A program made the position numbers and the translations under genes. Below are positions 31,867-37,914 of a DNA stretch of 44,645 nucleotides, piece after piece. This DNA comes from an uncultured Clostridia bacterium (lineage in GTDB: Bacteria > Bacillota > Clostridia > Christensenellales > UBA1242): the NCBI GenBank assembly GCA_944380415.1, contig CALWHN010000005.1, positions 1-44,645 on the forward strand, read 5' to 3'. Each line of letters starts with the position of its first letter. The stretch's first letter is position 1. Below the pieces are notes generated by a model, which was given only the letters and a program-made list of their open reading frames with translations, did no database searches and was not told the DNA's origin.

Positions 31867-32025
31867 TTATAGACGGTTGTAAAGCTCAGCCGCATGGTTT
31901 GAAACATTTTGGCTTACTTCTGCTTGAAAAGTTAAAGCAAATGCAACACATGCAACAATTCCTTGCAGAAGAGAAGTTGCAACTGTTTTAGCAATGTTTG
32001 TTTTTTCATCTAAAAATTTTCCCAT
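31867..32025 (-). CDS. small single-helix membrane peptide
   Basis: A 52-residue protein of unknown family, with a charged N-terminus (MGKFLDEK) and one membrane helix (about 13-33, VATSLLQGIVACVAFALTF). The start is supported by a GGAGGG site 9 nt upstream; a longer in-frame opening of 16 residues lacks one. It is divergent from the three-paralog cluster and uses a promoter that overlaps theirs. Confidence 0.65.
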   Translation of the reverse strand: MGKFLDEKTNIAKTVATSLLQGIVACVAFALTFQAEVSQNVSNHAAELYNRL

Positions 32026-32044
32026 TTTTGTTCCCTCCAAACGG

Positions 32045-32073
32045 AGTTTAACACATTGTTTTGACAATGTCAA
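32045..32073 (-). promoter_or_regulatory. promoter of the small membrane peptide
   Basis: Minus strand: -35 TTGACA (32068-32073), 17-bp spacer, extended -10 TGT-TAAACT (32045-32050 core). The -35 lies in the palindrome TTGACA-A-TGTCAA (32061-32073). Confidence 0.8.
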
Positions 32074-32076
32074 CCC

Positions 32077-32105
32077 TTGACATACTCGCGGCGTTGAGAT
32101 ATAAT
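32077..32105 (+). promoter_or_regulatory. consensus promoter of paralog 1, leaderless
   Basis: -35 TTGACA (32077-32082), 17-bp spacer, -10 TATAAT (32100-32105), 7 nt to the ATG at 32113. It is a perfect match on both boxes. Confidence 0.9.
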
Positions 32106-32112
32106 TTTAAAC

Positions 32113-33546
32113 ATGGAAAATACAGTTAAAATTGGAGAAGTTGAAATTTTAGAAAGGCTTGAACCGCTTGATGAGGCCGGAATAAAAGATCCTAAATTCA
32201 ATGTTAAAGTTGGCGAAAAAGAAGTTTGTTTTGAGTCAATCAACGAATTTGTTAGCAAAACATTAATTGGGCTTAACAATTGGTTTCTTCTAAGGCGCGA
32301 GAAGCTTTTGGATTGTCAAGATGAAAAGGCCAATCAAGCGGCGGAAAGATTGTACTATGTCTTTAAAACTTTCGAAGATGGGCAAATTGACAGAGAAGTT
32401 TTTTTAAAATTGATGAGTGAAGACCTTCCAAAGGTTATCGATTACGCTCCCGTTGAAAATTTTGGATTTAAATTTAAGGAAGTTTTTGGTAAAGCCATTA
32501 ATAATTTGGGCCATAGCAATTTTCATATATTTTGTCGAGGTTTTGTGCGCAGCCGCTTTGAAGAGCCAGTCTGTGTTCCACTCTATAAAAATGGAAGCGA
32601 ATTTAAGGAATTAATTGGAAACTATATCTGCATTCGCTTGTTTAAAGATTTTAAACATTCTGTTGTGAAAAATCTTGAAACCTTCAACGAAGCTTACATG
32701 AGGAATTTTATTGAAAAAAGCCCAAGAAATAACAGATTGAAATTGTTCTACGACAAGATTTCGGGAAATTATTATGGCGATTTTTTTAGAGAGGAATTTT
32801 TAAAGGAATTTAAAGGAATTAAAGAGGATTTATATGATGCTTTTAAAGAAATGCAGATAAAAACCTTTACTGACATAAAAGAAAGCCTTTACAGCCTGGA
32901 CGAAAAGGATGTTGACCAGGAAAAATCAAACGAGCTTGGCGTCAAGGTCTATGAAATTGGAGATCAACCAAAGAAAATGCTTCTTCATGTTACAAGGATG
33001 CGAAAGAGAGAAACTATCAAGAGAGACAATTTGGCCGAACTTAAAGAAAGATTTCTTCCCCAGGAGGGAAGGGCGGGCAAGGCAAACGACCATATTTCTC
33101 TTTCATACATTGACAATTCGGATATCAAAGCTTTCGAATCGCCAAATGACTATATTTCAGTAATTTATGGAAGCGACATTCCAAGCGACCATTTGCTAAC
33201 AATTAGCAATAAGGACGCTTACACCGAGAGAGAGGAAACGCCAGAGGAGGCGCCATATAGCAGTCAAGTTGCATGTTATCTCTCAGCAAAAGATTTGCTT
33301 GAAGAAACAGCTTTTTTCAATGAAGTTGCAATAATTAAGGCTGATGAGGTTGGGGGGAAAGGTGAAAAGCCTAATTTTCCAATTGCAATTTTCTGCAACG
33401 GAGATATAACTGAAAAGGATGTTGATGCTGCAAAATATCTAAATTTGCCAATTGTCCACTCAACAACAAAGAAGATTTTGGCCAATATTTATGCGGCATC
33501 TGGAGTTGGATTTCTAAACGCCGATGCCTTTGAGCAAGAGTTTTAG
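32113..33546 (+). CDS. unknown protein, paralog 1 of a three-gene cluster
   Basis: A 477-residue soluble protein with no signal peptide. The N-terminal part (1-270) is helical and variable; a shared block starts near residue 250 (IKEDLYDAFKEMQ, then SLY, DVDQ, LGVKVYEIG). The C-terminal domain (287-477) has LLHVT (His292), ISLSYIDNS (Tyr332), VIYGSDIP, HLLTISNKDAYT, FFNEVAI (Glu404) and FCNGDITEKDV. No ribosome site; a perfect promoter ends 7 nt before the ATG, so the mRNA should be leaderless. No recognised family. The H/Y/E spacing (40 and 72 residues) resembles some ADP-ribosyltransferases, but the fold is not shown. Confidence 0.8.
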   Translation: MENTVKIGEVEILERLEPLDEAGIKDPKFNVKVGEKEVCFESINEFVSKTLIGLNNWFLLRREKLLDCQDEKANQAAERLYYVFKTFEDGQIDREVFLKLMSEDLPKVIDYAPVENFGFKFKEVFGKAINNLGHSNFHIFCRGFVRSRFEEPVCVPLYKNGSEFKELIGNYICIRLFKDFKHSVVKNLETFNEAYMRNFIEKSPRNNRLKLFYDKISGNYYGDFFREEFLKEFKGIKEDLYDAFKEMQIKTFTDIKESLYSLDEKDVDQEKSNELGVKVYEIGDQPKKMLLHVTRMRKRETIKRDNLAELKERFLPQEGRAGKANDHISLSYIDNSDIKAFESPNDYISVIYGSDIPSDHLLTISNKDAYTEREETPEEAPYSSQVACYLSAKDLLEETAFFNEVAIIKADEVGGKGEKPNFPIAIFCNGDITEKDVDAAKYLNLPIVHSTTKKILANIYAASGVGFLNADAFEQEF

Positions 33547-33553
33547 TTCGACC

Positions 33554-33582
33554 TTGACATTGCGTTTTATGTAGGATATAAT
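33554..33582 (+). promoter_or_regulatory. consensus promoter of paralog 2, leaderless
   Basis: -35 TTGACA (33554-33559), 17-bp spacer, -10 TATAAT (33577-33582), 7 nt to the ATG at 33590, the same layout as the promoter of paralog 1. Confidence 0.9.
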
Positions 33583-33589
33583 TAAACAG

Positions 33590-34957
33590 ATGATAAAAAG
33601 CGGCGAAGAAATAATATATAAAATTTTTAAACAGCCAGTTCAGCAGTTAAGGCTAAATTTATTGATCCACAGATTTTTAAGAGGCCAAAATCTTTTGGCA
33701 GAAACAGATTTTGAAAAAGAAAGAGATGTTGACGCTCTTTTAAATTTATTGGATCAAGACCTAACTAGAAATGAAAACAGACAAAAGTTAAAACTTTATG
33801 AAAAAAGCCTAAAAAAATATTGCCCAGTTGAAACTGTTCCTAAAAACATTAAAAAAATTGTTTTCGTCGCTTTTTCGCTTGAAAATGTGACATATGCAAA
33901 TCAGCCAATAGTATCTAGATATAATGAAAATTTTTTAAATTCAAATTGTATAATAAATATAAAGAATTTTTCTGGATTTTACAGCCATTTTTTAAAAAAT
34001 TATATAACAATCAATCTTTTTAACGATTTTTATGAAGATGTTTTGGTAAACCTTGAGTCGTTTGTTTATTCATATAAAAAGGGCCTTTTAAAAAAGTCTG
34101 AGCGAAATGACAGGCTTCAAAGATTTTATAACTTACTTTCTTCCAAGGACGGCGAAATTTTTTCGGCGGACCTTTCAAAGTTCGTTGGAATTAAAGAGGA
34201 CTTATATGATGTCTTTAAGGAGATGCAGCAGGTTGCTTTTAACAGCATAAAAGAAAGCCTATATCTTCCAAAGCAGGAAGATTTGGACCAACGCAGGACA
34301 GAGCGCTTTGGTGTTAAAGTTTACAACATTGGCTCTTCTCAGAAAAAACTCTTGTTGCACGTAACAAGTTTTAGTCGAAAATGGAGGAGAAATTCTCCAG
34401 AAAAGCTAAAAGTTTTTAGAGGCAAGGGCCCTGTTTCAATTAAGCATTCAATCCTTCCAGAAAGGGGAAGAAGAGGAAAGGCAAACGATTTTATTTCGCT
34501 TTCCTATGTTGACAATTCAGATCTTAAAACATTTAGAGATATCGGACATTTTGTTTGTTTGGTCTACGGGAACAACATTCCAAACGACCACTTGATTACA
34601 ATCAGTAACATGGACGCCTTCACCGAAAGATCTCAAACAGCAGAGGGAGCAGTTTTTAGCGACCAAAAACCCTTCTATTCTTCCGCCGACGACCTTTTGG
34701 ATTCAACAAAGGTTGTAAACGAAATTGCGGTTATAAAAAGAGACGATTTTGGGGAAGAAGTTGGAGAGCCAAATCTTCCAATTGCGGTCTTTTGCAATGG
34801 TTTTATAACGGAGGAAGATGTTAGATGTGCAAGACGATTTAATGTTCCAATTATCTTCTCTGAAACATATAAAAATATGGAATGCGAAGGCTACAGTTTT
34901 GAAGGAATGGTTTATTTCTATGATTCAGATTGTATTGAAAGCGAGGCGGTTTTGTGA
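33590..34957 (+). CDS. unknown protein, paralog 2 of a three-gene cluster
   Basis: A 455-residue relative of paralog 1. Shared block: IKEDLYDVFKEMQ, FGVKVYNIGSSQKK, then LLHVT (His257), ISLSYVDNS (Tyr306), LVYGNNIPNDH, TISNMDAFT, VNEIAVIK (Glu378) and VFCNGFITEEDV. The N-terminal 200 residues keep the helical style but diverge more. The start is leaderless, like paralog 1. The end overlaps the next GTG (GTGA) by 4 bp, so paralogs 2 and 3 are coupled. Function unknown. Confidence 0.8.
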   Translation: MIKSGEEIIYKIFKQPVQQLRLNLLIHRFLRGQNLLAETDFEKERDVDALLNLLDQDLTRNENRQKLKLYEKSLKKYCPVETVPKNIKKIVFVAFSLENVTYANQPIVSRYNENFLNSNCIINIKNFSGFYSHFLKNYITINLFNDFYEDVLVNLESFVYSYKKGLLKKSERNDRLQRFYNLLSSKDGEIFSADLSKFVGIKEDLYDVFKEMQQVAFNSIKESLYLPKQEDLDQRRTERFGVKVYNIGSSQKKLLLHVTSFSRKWRRNSPEKLKVFRGKGPVSIKHSILPERGRRGKANDFISLSYVDNSDLKTFRDIGHFVCLVYGNNIPNDHLITISNMDAFTERSQTAEGAVFSDQKPFYSSADDLLDSTKVVNEIAVIKRDDFGEEVGEPNLPIAVFCNGFITEEDVRCARRFNVPIIFSETYKNMECEGYSFEGMVYFYDSDCIESEAVL

Positions 34958-36138
34958 AAATGAAATATGATTATGATGAAAGAAGAAGCAACCTTATAAC
35001 AAGGCAAGAAATTGCTTGTTTTCTGTTTGCACTAAAAAATAAAATTATTCCAGAAGATGAAACAACGGAAATTTTAAAACAAAAATTAATAGAGGGGCCA
35101 ACGGGGTTTGACAAAAATTCACTGAGTGCTTTTGCAAGCAAAAAGAAAGAAATTTTAAAAAAATTTAAAGAAATTCCTTTTTCAAGCTTTAAAAATGCGC
35201 CAATTGAGGTTTTAAGAGAAGTTTTTTGTGTAAAAGTCTTTCAGGATAGTTATAAAAACGTTATGACAAATTTAAAAACTTTCAACGAAGCTTTTCAAAA
35301 GGGATTTTTAAATGAAAAAGACAATTTTAAAAGGCTTGGAGAAGTTTTTAATTTGTTAAACTCAAACAAGGAAATTATAAACAGTGTTAACCTGGAAAGA
35401 TATTCCGGCTTAAAAGAAGTTTTGTATGACGCCTTTAAAGAGATGCAAGAGCAAACTTTTTCCGACATTAAAAAAAGCCTTTACACTTTGGAAGAGGCGG
35501 ACATAGACCAAAAGCTTTCAGAGAATTTGGGCGTTACGGTTTACAAAATTGGAAAGCAGCCAAAGAAAATGCTTATGCACGTTAGTTGGATTGAAAAAAA
35601 GAACATGCAAAGCGAGGGGGATTATTTTGAGCCAAAGGGAAAGAAAAATGTTTTAAGCGAATACATTGCGCTAAGCTATGTTGATAACGGCCATTTAAAA
35701 ACCTACAGGAATTTGGACGATTATATAACAGTTATTTATGGAAGAGATATTCCTCAGGACCACCTCGTTGCAATAAGTGATAAGGACGCCTTTGTTTCAT
35801 ATGAGTGGCCAAGCGAAGACGTAAAGGAAAAGGGCGAAGAGAAGGGGCTTGGAACAACGGTTAGCAACCAAAAGCAGCTTTTTCTTGGCGCGAAAGAGCT
35901 TTTGGAAAGAACCCAGGTTTTTAACGAAATTTCAATTCTAAGGCAAGACGCTGCTTCTCAAAATCCAATTACAACAAGGCCAATTGCAGTTTTTTGCAGA
36001 AGGGAAATTTCCGACGCAGACGTTTCGTTTGCAAAAAAATATGGCCTTCCAATTGTCCTGTCCAATGCAAATTACAGCTATAAATCCCAGTGGACGGATA
36101 AAACGCGCTTTGACAACACGGACTACTTGGAGATGTGA
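34954..36138 (+). CDS. unknown protein, paralog 3 of a three-gene cluster
   Basis: A 394-residue member, shorter at the N-terminus. It keeps LKEVLYDAFKEMQ, LGVTVYKIGKQPKK, MHVS (His209, HVS rather than HVT), IALSYVDNG (Tyr242), VIYGRDIPQDH, AISDKDAFV, FNEISIL (Glu325) and VFCRREISDADV. The GTG at 34954 overlaps the previous TGA by 4 bp; an ATG at 34960 is the alternative. A GAGGCGG-like site precedes it, so unlike its sisters it is translated by re-initiation or a weak ribosome site. A poly-A/T hairpin terminator follows. Confidence 0.78.
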   Translation: MKMKYDYDERRSNLITRQEIACFLFALKNKIIPEDETTEILKQKLIEGPTGFDKNSLSAFASKKKEILKKFKEIPFSSFKNAPIEVLREVFCVKVFQDSYKNVMTNLKTFNEAFQKGFLNEKDNFKRLGEVFNLLNSNKEIINSVNLERYSGLKEVLYDAFKEMQEQTFSDIKKSLYTLEEADIDQKLSENLGVTVYKIGKQPKKMLMHVSWIEKKNMQSEGDYFEPKGKKNVLSEYIALSYVDNGHLKTYRNLDDYITVIYGRDIPQDHLVAISDKDAFVSYEWPSEDVKEKGEEKGLGTTVSNQKQLFLGAKELLERTQVFNEISILRQDAASQNPITTRPIAVFCRREISDADVSFAKKYGLPIVLSNANYSYKSQWTDKTRFDNTDYLEM

Positions 36139-36150
36139 ATTAATAAAATA

Positions 36151-36188
36151 AAAAACAAACAATAAAAAATTTGTTTGTTTTTTTGTTT
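36151..36188 (+). terminator. terminator after the paralog cluster
   Basis: Arms 36153-36162 and 36171-36180 pair perfectly (AAACAAACAA/TTGTTTGTTT) with an 8-nt loop and a T-run. The -35 region of the next gene would overlap it. Confidence 0.75.
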
Positions 36189-36207
36189 TAGTGTCAATAA
36201 TCTAATC

Positions 36208-37914
36208 ATGACATCTTTTCCAGTTATCAATGGAAGCGCAATAGCAGATGGAAAGAGCAGGGCAATTGCTTGGGTTAATCCAAAGGGAAAAATTGACCTC
36301 GTTTCTTTCAAAGGCAAAAAGAATTTTATGGGTTCAAAAATTCCCTTTCTGAGGGGAATTGCATTTTTAGTTTTTGGAATTTACATTTTTATTGCTTCGC
36401 TTGGAAAAAGTCAGCTTGGAACAAAGACGGGAAAGGGTGAGGAATTTGAAGAAAAAATTGCAAAAAAACTAAAAGTTTCACCAATTGTTGTAACTTTAAC
36501 AATTTCGGGGGCAATTGGAGCACTTGTTGGCTTTTTGGGCTTAATTTTGATTCCATATTTCTTTTTCTCAATGCTTTTAGATAAGGGCCTGGACTTATAT
36601 CTGGTTGCATTCATCATGGCTCTTTTAAGAGTTGGCCTTTTAATTTTAATTTTGCTTTCTCTTAGATTTATTCCATCTATGAGACAGCTCTATCGAAATA
36701 ATGCCGCAGGGAACCTTGCGGTTGCAAGCCACGAGGGAAAGCGCCTTGACTCTCACTATCTCTCAACAAATTTTTTAAACTTTGTTGTTTGGGGTTTTAT
36801 TCTTTCATTTTTTGTGGTATCATTTGTTGTTGCAGAAATTAATTTCTTTTTTAAGTTTTTAATTAATTTAGCAGTTACATTTGCGGCTTTTTCGCTTGTT
36901 TATGAATTTTTAAAGCTTTTTGAGTTCAAAAACAATTTATTTGCAAAAATTGTTACAAATCCAATTGCATATTTGACAAGCGAAATTCCAACCCAAACGG
37001 AAAGAGAAACGGCGTTTTCTGCGCTTAGCGAGGTTGTTTTAATGGAAGAAAACGAGGATAGAATTGTTAGAAAAGTTGGGCCCGGAGTTGCCTTTAGCGT
37101 TGCCTACAGCGAGGTTAAACAAAGGCTTTTGGACGCGGGGATAAGCGATCCGGCCGAAGCGGACTGGCTTATTGCAAGCGCGCTTAACATTGGCCGCGGC
37201 GAAGTTAAAATGCTTACAAATTTAACGTCAGAGCAATATAAAAAAATTAAAAACGCTCTTGCAAAGCGCGAAAAAAGAATGCCAATTTCAAAAATTTTCA
37301 ATCTTGCTTGTTTTTATGGAAGAGATTTTTATGTTGACAAAAATGTTCTCTCTCCAAGGCAAGAAACAGAGCTTGTTGCAGAAGAGGCCATAAAGGAGGC
37401 CAAAAAGTTCATAGACCAGCCAAAAGTTTTGGATTTAATGACGGGAAGCGGAGTTATTGCCGTTACTGTTGCACTTGAAACAAATTCAACAGTTTTTGCA
37501 AGCGATGTTTCAAAGGCTGCGCTAGAGGTTGCAAAGAAGAACGCAAAGGCAATTGGCGCAAAGGTTAAGTTTGTTGAAAGCGACCTGTTCAAAGCGTTTA
37601 AACGCGAAAAATTTGACATTATCGTTTCAAATCCGCCATACATTGCGTCAAAGGAAATTTTGACGTTGGATGACGAGGTTAAAAAATATGACCCGTTAAT
37701 TTCTCTTGACGGCGGAGAAGACGGCCTCTATTTCTATCGCGAAATTGCAAATGTTTCGCCCAAATTTTTAAAGGAGGGCGGCGAGCTGATTTTGGAGATT
37801 GGAAGTACCCAAGGCGGAAGCGTTAAAAAATTGTTGCAAAATAACTTTAAAAATATTAAAATAAAAAAAGATTATAGTGGTAACGACAGAATTGTTGTTG
37901 CAACAAAGAAATAG
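36208..37914 (+). CDS. prmC: DUF1385-PrmC fusion: release-factor glutamine methyltransferase
   Basis: A 568-residue protein in two parts. Residues 1-275 are a DUF1385-like membrane module with about four to five helices (40-62, 95-118, 120-150, 195-225), opening with PVINGSAIADGKSRAIAW. Residues 285-568 are a full PrmC: an N-terminal helical domain with DPAEADWLIASAL, motif I VLDLMTGSGVIAVTV and catalytic NPPY (475-478). PrmC methylates the GGQ glutamine of release factors, and prfA follows 18 bp downstream. In related genomes DUF1385 and prmC are neighbouring genes; here they are joined in one frame. AATAAT lies 6 nt before the ATG, a possible leaderless start. Confidence 0.88.
   Translation: MTSFPVINGSAIADGKSRAIAWVNPKGKIDLVSFKGKKNFMGSKIPFLRGIAFLVFGIYIFIASLGKSQLGTKTGKGEEFEEKIAKKLKVSPIVVTLTISGAIGALVGFLGLILIPYFFFSMLLDKGLDLYLVAFIMALLRVGLLILILLSLRFIPSMRQLYRNNAAGNLAVASHEGKRLDSHYLSTNFLNFVVWGFILSFFVVSFVVAEINFFFKFLINLAVTFAAFSLVYEFLKLFEFKNNLFAKIVTNPIAYLTSEIPTQTERETAFSALSEVVLMEENEDRIVRKVGPGVAFSVAYSEVKQRLLDAGISDPAEADWLIASALNIGRGEVKMLTNLTSEQYKKIKNALAKREKRMPISKIFNLACFYGRDFYVDKNVLSPRQETELVAEEAIKEAKKFIDQPKVLDLMTGSGVIAVTVALETNSTVFASDVSKAALEVAKKNAKAIGAKVKFVESDLFKAFKREKFDIIVSNPPYIASKEILTLDDEVKKYDPLISLDGGEDGLYFYREIANVSPKFLKEGGELILEIGSTQGGSVKKLLQNNFKNIKIKKDYSGNDRIVVATKK

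What the first reader, a model, noticed from the sequence alone, without database searches (positions are those of the whole stretch)
32113..36138. Tandem cluster of three paralogs of an unrecognised family
Three adjacent genes (477, 455 and 394 residues) share a block (LYDAFKEMQ ... LGVKVYxIG) and a C-terminal domain with HV(T/S), (I)SLSY(I/V)DN, (V)IYG..IP..H, IS..DAF/YT and NE(V/I). N-termini diverge strongly, which suggests tandem duplication followed by specialisation of one half while the C-terminal domain is kept. The first two carry nearly identical perfect leaderless promoters, so promoter plus gene was probably duplicated together; paralog 3 is coupled to paralog 2.
Basis: partly seen in the sequence, partly recalled or inferred. 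Interest (0 to 1): 0.75.

Follow-up and report, generated by a model that had tools for sequence, protein, structure and literature searches.

The report
Tandem trio of unnamed enzyme-like proteins
Three neighbouring genes in an uncultured gut Clostridia genome encode related proteins with different front ends and a shared back-end domain that no family library recognises; the domain also occurs patchily in other small-genome Clostridia and looks like an enzyme domain of fast-changing accessory genes, but its fold and function are not established.

Summary
Three adjacent ORFs (477, 455, 394 aa) are true paralogs (E 1.8e-86 and 2.2e-62), not low complexity. They match nothing in Pfam, NCBIfam, PADLOC or PDB sequences, nor (domain) PHROGs. 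The shared part is larger than stated: residues 165-275 (38-44% identical) plus the C-terminal ~200 aa (38-51%); only residues 1-164 diverge. Profile searches show the C-terminal domain is a wider unnamed family: 18/197 genomes sampled in this family, 18/117 in a second Clostridia family, none found in viral, phage or plasmid collections. Two columns are invariant (D368, E404 in a YNE motif); S-x-S and H292 are frequent. Some relatives fuse it to an HD domain.

The cluster behaves like an accessory, conflict-type locus: empty in one congener, one copy in another, triplicated in two, independently tandem in a fourth, and gene 1 was recently exchanged between two species (dS 0.044 against 0.23-1.9 in other genes compared).

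Best guess, unproven: an enzyme domain, most likely ADP-ribosyltransferase-like, aimed by variable helical N-termini. AlphaFold gave no usable model (pLDDT 48 and 31) and profile comparison with DarT and KptA found nothing. The promoters share consensus hexamers and geometry, but their spacers do not resemble each other.

The parts
32077..32112 (+). Promoter of paralog 1: TTGACA (32077-32082), 17-base spacer, TATAAT (32100-32105), 7 bases to ATG; leaderless geometry
   Evidence: conserved in G002
32113..33546 (+). Paralog 1, 477 aa
32605..32937 (+). Paralog 1 middle region (residues 165-275), conserved helical module with LYDAFKEMQ
   Evidence: helices predicted with pLDDT about 52-89
32932..33543 (+). 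C-terminal domain of paralog 1 (H292, S329-x-S331, D368, N403-E404)
33554..33589 (+). Promoter of paralog 2: TTGACA, 17-base spacer, TATAAT (33577-33582), 7 bases to ATG
   Evidence: conserved in G002
33590..34957 (+). Paralog 2, 455 aa
34304..34954 (+). C-terminal domain of paralog 2
34954..36138 (+). Paralog 3, 394 aa, GTG start overlapping the stop of paralog 2 (GTGA), probably translationally coupled
35524..36135 (+). C-terminal domain of paralog 3
32001..33650 (.). Stretch (gene 1, both promoters, first bases of gene 2) at 95-100% DNA identity to the species in G002, recently exchanged; neighbouring housekeeping genes 80-100%, paralogs 2 and 3 mostly 63-88%
   Evidence: sliding identity; dS

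Best explanation
The three genes are members of an unnamed, patchily distributed family of proteins without a visible signal peptide, made of a variable, mostly helical N-terminal part and a conserved C-terminal domain of about 200 aa. Shown: paralogy, the wider domain family, the invariant D and E, patchy presence at one chromosomal site, repeated tandem duplication, and a recent exchange of gene 1 between species. Inferred: the C-terminal domain is an enzyme, most likely of ADP-ribosyltransferase-like (NAD+-consuming) type, with E404 as catalytic glutamate and H292 and S-x-S(Y) on the preceding core strands; the N-terminal helices choose the target or sense a trigger; the cluster is an accessory conflict locus (defence against phage or rivals, or self-limiting toxin) that cells gain, duplicate, exchange and lose. 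The strong promoters of genes 1 and 2 suggest steady production of leaderless messages.
For: Family and conservation: D368 and E404 28/28, N403 26/28, S or C at 329 27/28, S331 21/28, P423 25/28, H292 16/28 in a divergent set, the pattern of an active site rather than a scaffold. Motif order resembles ARTs: H on a first strand, S-T-S-like motif (ISTSY, ISTT, ICTS in relatives), then Y-N-E followed by a hydrophobic strand (the resemblance to PARP Y-N-E and to R-S-E enzymes is recalled, not tested). The low-confidence model puts strands at 288-295, 326-333, 404-407 and 426-429. KptA, an ART-fold enzyme, appears at E 0.33 over 257-314 of paralog 1, not significant. Accessory behaviour: 18/197 own-family genomes and 18/117 of another family; empty pnp-rpmE-prmC site in G003, one copy in G001; independent tandem pair in G004; gene 1 dS 0.044 against 0.23-1.9 elsewhere. 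HD-domain fusions in four relatives, two above Pfam's cut-off.
Against: No fold was obtained: AlphaFold mean pLDDT 47.8 (full length) and 31.3 (domain); structure search of the first gave nothing better than E 0.94. Profile comparison with DarT and KptA gave no match, though DarT and KptA do not match each other in the same test either. H292 is not conserved in 12 of 28 rows, and two further relatives have Q in place of E. The C-terminal strand-helix-strand (PDYI...AK..IPIV), weakly like ribosomal protein S2, is not a usual ART feature. No phage, plasmid or viral-contig relatives and no conserved defence neighbour.
Confidence: 0.35

Rival explanations
1. The C-terminal domain is a new alpha/beta fold unrelated to ARTs, for example a Rossmann-like domain with another hydrolase or transferase chemistry or a nucleotide sensor; the locus is still an accessory conflict-type cluster.
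For: The end of the domain (P-D/S-Y-I ... A-K-x-x-x-I-P-I-V-x-I-D) reads like a strand-helix-strand of Rossmann type, with weak hits to ribosomal protein S2. Invariant D and E with a poorly conserved H do not fit a strict H-Y-E or R-S-E triad. HD domains joined in relatives suggest nucleotide chemistry.
Against: The S-x-S strand and the YNE strand followed by a hydrophobic strand fit an ART core about as well; no profile supports a Rossmann enzyme either.
Confidence: 0.4
2. The proteins are delivered out of the cell and act on host or competitor cells, with the N-terminal part as delivery or binding module.
For: The named relatives are metagenome-assembled Clostridia; variable N-terminus plus fixed C-terminal domain is the layout of polymorphic effectors (general knowledge); rapid divergence.
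Against: No signal peptide or transmembrane stretch is visible in the three proteins; neighbours are housekeeping genes without a secretion system or dedicated immunity gene.
Confidence: 0.12
3. Lineage-specific regulatory or metabolic proteins with an ordinary physiological role, not a conflict system.
For: dN/dS of 0.15-0.34 shows purifying selection; strong conserved promoters; housekeeping neighbourhood.
Against: Absent from most genomes of its own family and from a congener at the same site; gene 1 exchanged between species; some relatives appear broken.
Confidence: 0.13

Closest known systems
DarT (Pfam PF14487), DNA-modifying ADP-ribosyltransferase
   Same: Comparable size; an aspartate between the middle strands and a catalytic glutamate on a strand followed by a hydrophobic strand (compared by eye with L084).
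   Different: No profile or hhalign match; no DarG macrodomain partner next to the genes; extra C-terminal strand-helix-strand.
KptA/Tpt1 RNA 2'-phosphotransferase (PF01885), ART fold
   Same: Only sequence hint to an ART-fold enzyme: E 0.33 over residues 257-314.
   Different: Not significant; hhalign P 0.04; D368 and the YNE motif have no established counterpart.
Enzymes joining an HD-type domain to a mono-ADP-ribosyltransferase domain (SidE type; recalled, not tested)
   Same: Some relatives, not the window genes, join the domain to an HD domain before (L028) or after it (L068, L069, L073).
   Different: Homology to SidE was not tested; none of its Pfam models was hit; the window proteins have no HD domain.

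Membership tests
ADP-ribosyltransferase superfamily | Split-beta-sheet ART fold | tested here: inconclusive
   AlphaFold models unusable; Foldseek no match
ADP-ribosyltransferase superfamily | Catalytic glutamate on a core strand | tested here: inconclusive
   E404 invariant in the 28-row set, but Q in two further relatives; strand placement only from a low-confidence model
ADP-ribosyltransferase superfamily | H or R on first strand and S-T-S or Y on second | tested here: inconclusive
   H292 16/28 with R in 3; S/C329-x-S331 frequent
ADP-ribosyltransferase superfamily | Significant profile match to any ART family | tested here: not met
   Pfam, NCBIfam, PADLOC, PHROGs, PDB sequences, hhalign to DarT and KptA
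ADP-ribosyltransferase superfamily | NAD+ as substrate | not testable with these tools
   needs protein assay
Toxin-antitoxin system | Conserved adjacent antitoxin gene | tested here: not met
   No shared partner gene in ten neighbourhoods; the divergent 52-aa ORF was found only in two species
Known anti-phage defence system | Match to PADLOC models | tested here: not met

The most novel reading that the evidence does not exclude
A previously unnamed NAD+-dependent (ART-like) effector domain family of small-genome Clostridia that swaps helical targeting parts and HD-domain partners, forming a new kind of intracellular conflict or defence system whose genes spread by homologous replacement at a fixed chromosomal site instead of on mobile elements.
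Probability: 0.2. Interest if true: 0.75.

Novelty: new variant of a known kind. Interest (0 to 1): 0.42.

Why it matters
The domain has no profile in any library searched yet occurs in about 10-15% of sampled genomes of two Clostridia families, so many proteins annotated only as hypothetical could be grouped by one model. If it is an effector enzyme, it would be a conflict system of uncultured reduced-genome gut bacteria that current defence catalogues miss. The mosaic exchange of one paralog between species makes the selection on it directly testable.

Tried and rejected
Low-complexity artefact: rejected. Phage or plasmid origin: no match for paralog 1 in phages and plasmids, nor in four viral-contig scans with members of the family; a fifth viral scan, with DarT to gather more DarT sequences, also found nothing. 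Pfam 'Fe-S_assembly' and IscX hits on 233-275, 'Defb50' and T-cell-receptor hits: chance matches below cut-off. Foldseek on the low-confidence model: meaningless. hhalign to DarT and KptA: no match, with the control pair failing too, so uninformative. Literature searches for an ART-like or HD-fused family in Clostridia gave no description of this domain in titles or abstracts.

Full report
The observation. Gene 1 against the whole 851-kb genome finds only genes 2 and 3, at E 1.8e-86 and 2.2e-62, and a wide profile finds no further copy. Genes 2 and 3 overlap by GTGA, so gene 3 is probably coupled to gene 2. The conserved part is more than the C-terminal domain: residues 165-275 of gene 1 are 38-44% identical between paralogs, the C-terminal part 38-51%, and only residues 1-164 are at 15-20% with large gaps.

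Identity. None of the proteins reaches a curated cut-off in Pfam, NCBIfam or PADLOC, and paralog 1 has no PDB sequence relative; 19 and 28 family members scanned one by one give only scattered chance hits in Pfam, NCBIfam and PHROGs, as do profiles against PDB sequences.

A wider family. A profile of the domain, seeded with the paralogs, their orthologs and two distant proteins of a congener, finds 18 of 197 sampled genomes of the same family, none outside that family in a sample of its order, 6 of 391 in the class sample, own genome included, and, after widening, 18 of 117 genomes of a second family. The broad phylum sample of 299 gave only the own genome. Most relatives are 300-1850 aa with divergent N-termini that look helix-rich by eye. 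In a 28-row alignment two columns are invariant, D368 and E404 (paralog 1 numbering), and N403 is nearly so; S/C329, S331, P423 and P446 are frequent, H292 is present in 16. Two further relatives (L029, L033) have Q at the E position. Four relatives join the domain to an HD domain, two of them above Pfam's cut-off, before it in L028 and after it in L068, with sub-threshold matches in L069 and L073.

Evolution of the locus. The site lies between pnp-rpmE and a fused yqhQ-prmC gene. Of the congeners, G002 has the same three genes, G001 one gene next to yqhQ-prmC, and G003 none, with rpmE and yqhQ-prmC about 70 bases apart. G004, a less complete genome, has a distant tandem pair elsewhere, before dnaX. 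The tree groups orthologs 1-1, 2-2 and 3-3 with strong support, so the triplication predates the split of the two species, and places the G004 pair as a separate duplication. Gene 1 differs from its G002 ortholog by dS 0.044, while the other genes compared in this part of the window have dS 0.23-1.9 and paralogs 2 and 3 have 0.70 and 0.90. Identity along the DNA stays at 95-100% from about 32001 to 33600 and then falls inside gene 2. The simplest reading is recent homologous replacement of gene 1, its promoter and the start of gene 2 between the two lineages. dN/dS of 0.15-0.34 suggests that all three are kept as proteins.

Promoters. Both upstream elements are exact TTGACA-N17-TATAAT with 7 bases to the ATG; the genome has five exact matches to this kind of site, none for the reversed control. 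They are conserved in G002 and, with other spacing, in G001; the G097 gene has a weaker version; most more distant relatives have longer leaders. The hexamers and geometry are alike, the spacers are not.

Mechanism. The order of conserved elements (H-bearing strand, S-x-S strand, invariant D, Y-N-E strand followed by a hydrophobic strand) suggested an ADP-ribosyltransferase-like enzyme, and a non-significant KptA hit (E 0.33) points the same way. The tests did not settle it. The last 30 residues of the core look like a Rossmann-type strand-helix-strand, which is unusual for ARTs. I therefore give the ART reading 0.35 and a different, new alpha/beta enzyme or sensor domain 0.4; the ART reading is the most specific mechanism I can name, not the majority bet. 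The accessory, conflict-like behaviour of the locus is better supported than either chemistry.

Verdict. A real, unnamed family with a tandem trio in a patchy and recombining locus; mechanism open. Interest moderate, because the key question (the fold) could be settled by one deeper structure prediction.

Noticed in passing
window 31867-32025 (-): A 52-aa ORF with a Shine-Dalgarno sequence (GGAGGG), its own promoter-like site (TTGACA-N17-TAAACT, 32073-32045) and one hydrophobic stretch runs divergently from paralog 1. It is conserved in G002 (71% aa, dN 0.19, dS 0.39) and no homolog was found in G001 or at the empty site of G003. Possible partner of the trio.
   Followed up: partly
L088, L090 and L092 (relatives in G146, G117, G155): A gene that looks, from its sequence, like a uracil/hypoxanthine-DNA glycosylase lies convergent and directly next to the family gene in two genomes and about 1 kb away in a third; two of the three genomes share the genus.
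   Followed up: no
L047 (G865:C29:2757-3269), L068 (G982:C4), L062/L074 (G937:C9): Some relatives carry an in-frame TAG or are split between frames inside the domain, which suggests decay in some genomes.
   Followed up: no
window 36175-37914 (+): One ORF joins a YqhQ-like membrane part to PrmC (release factor methyltransferase), just before prfA; orthologs of similar full length are found in congeners and some other genera, while in other genera only the PrmC part matches.
   Followed up: no
window 32024-32082: Back-to-back promoters of the 52-aa ORF and paralog 1 with a palindrome TTGACAATGTCAA (CATTGTTTTGACAATG just upstream) between them; partly lost in G002. Could be an operator.
   Followed up: no
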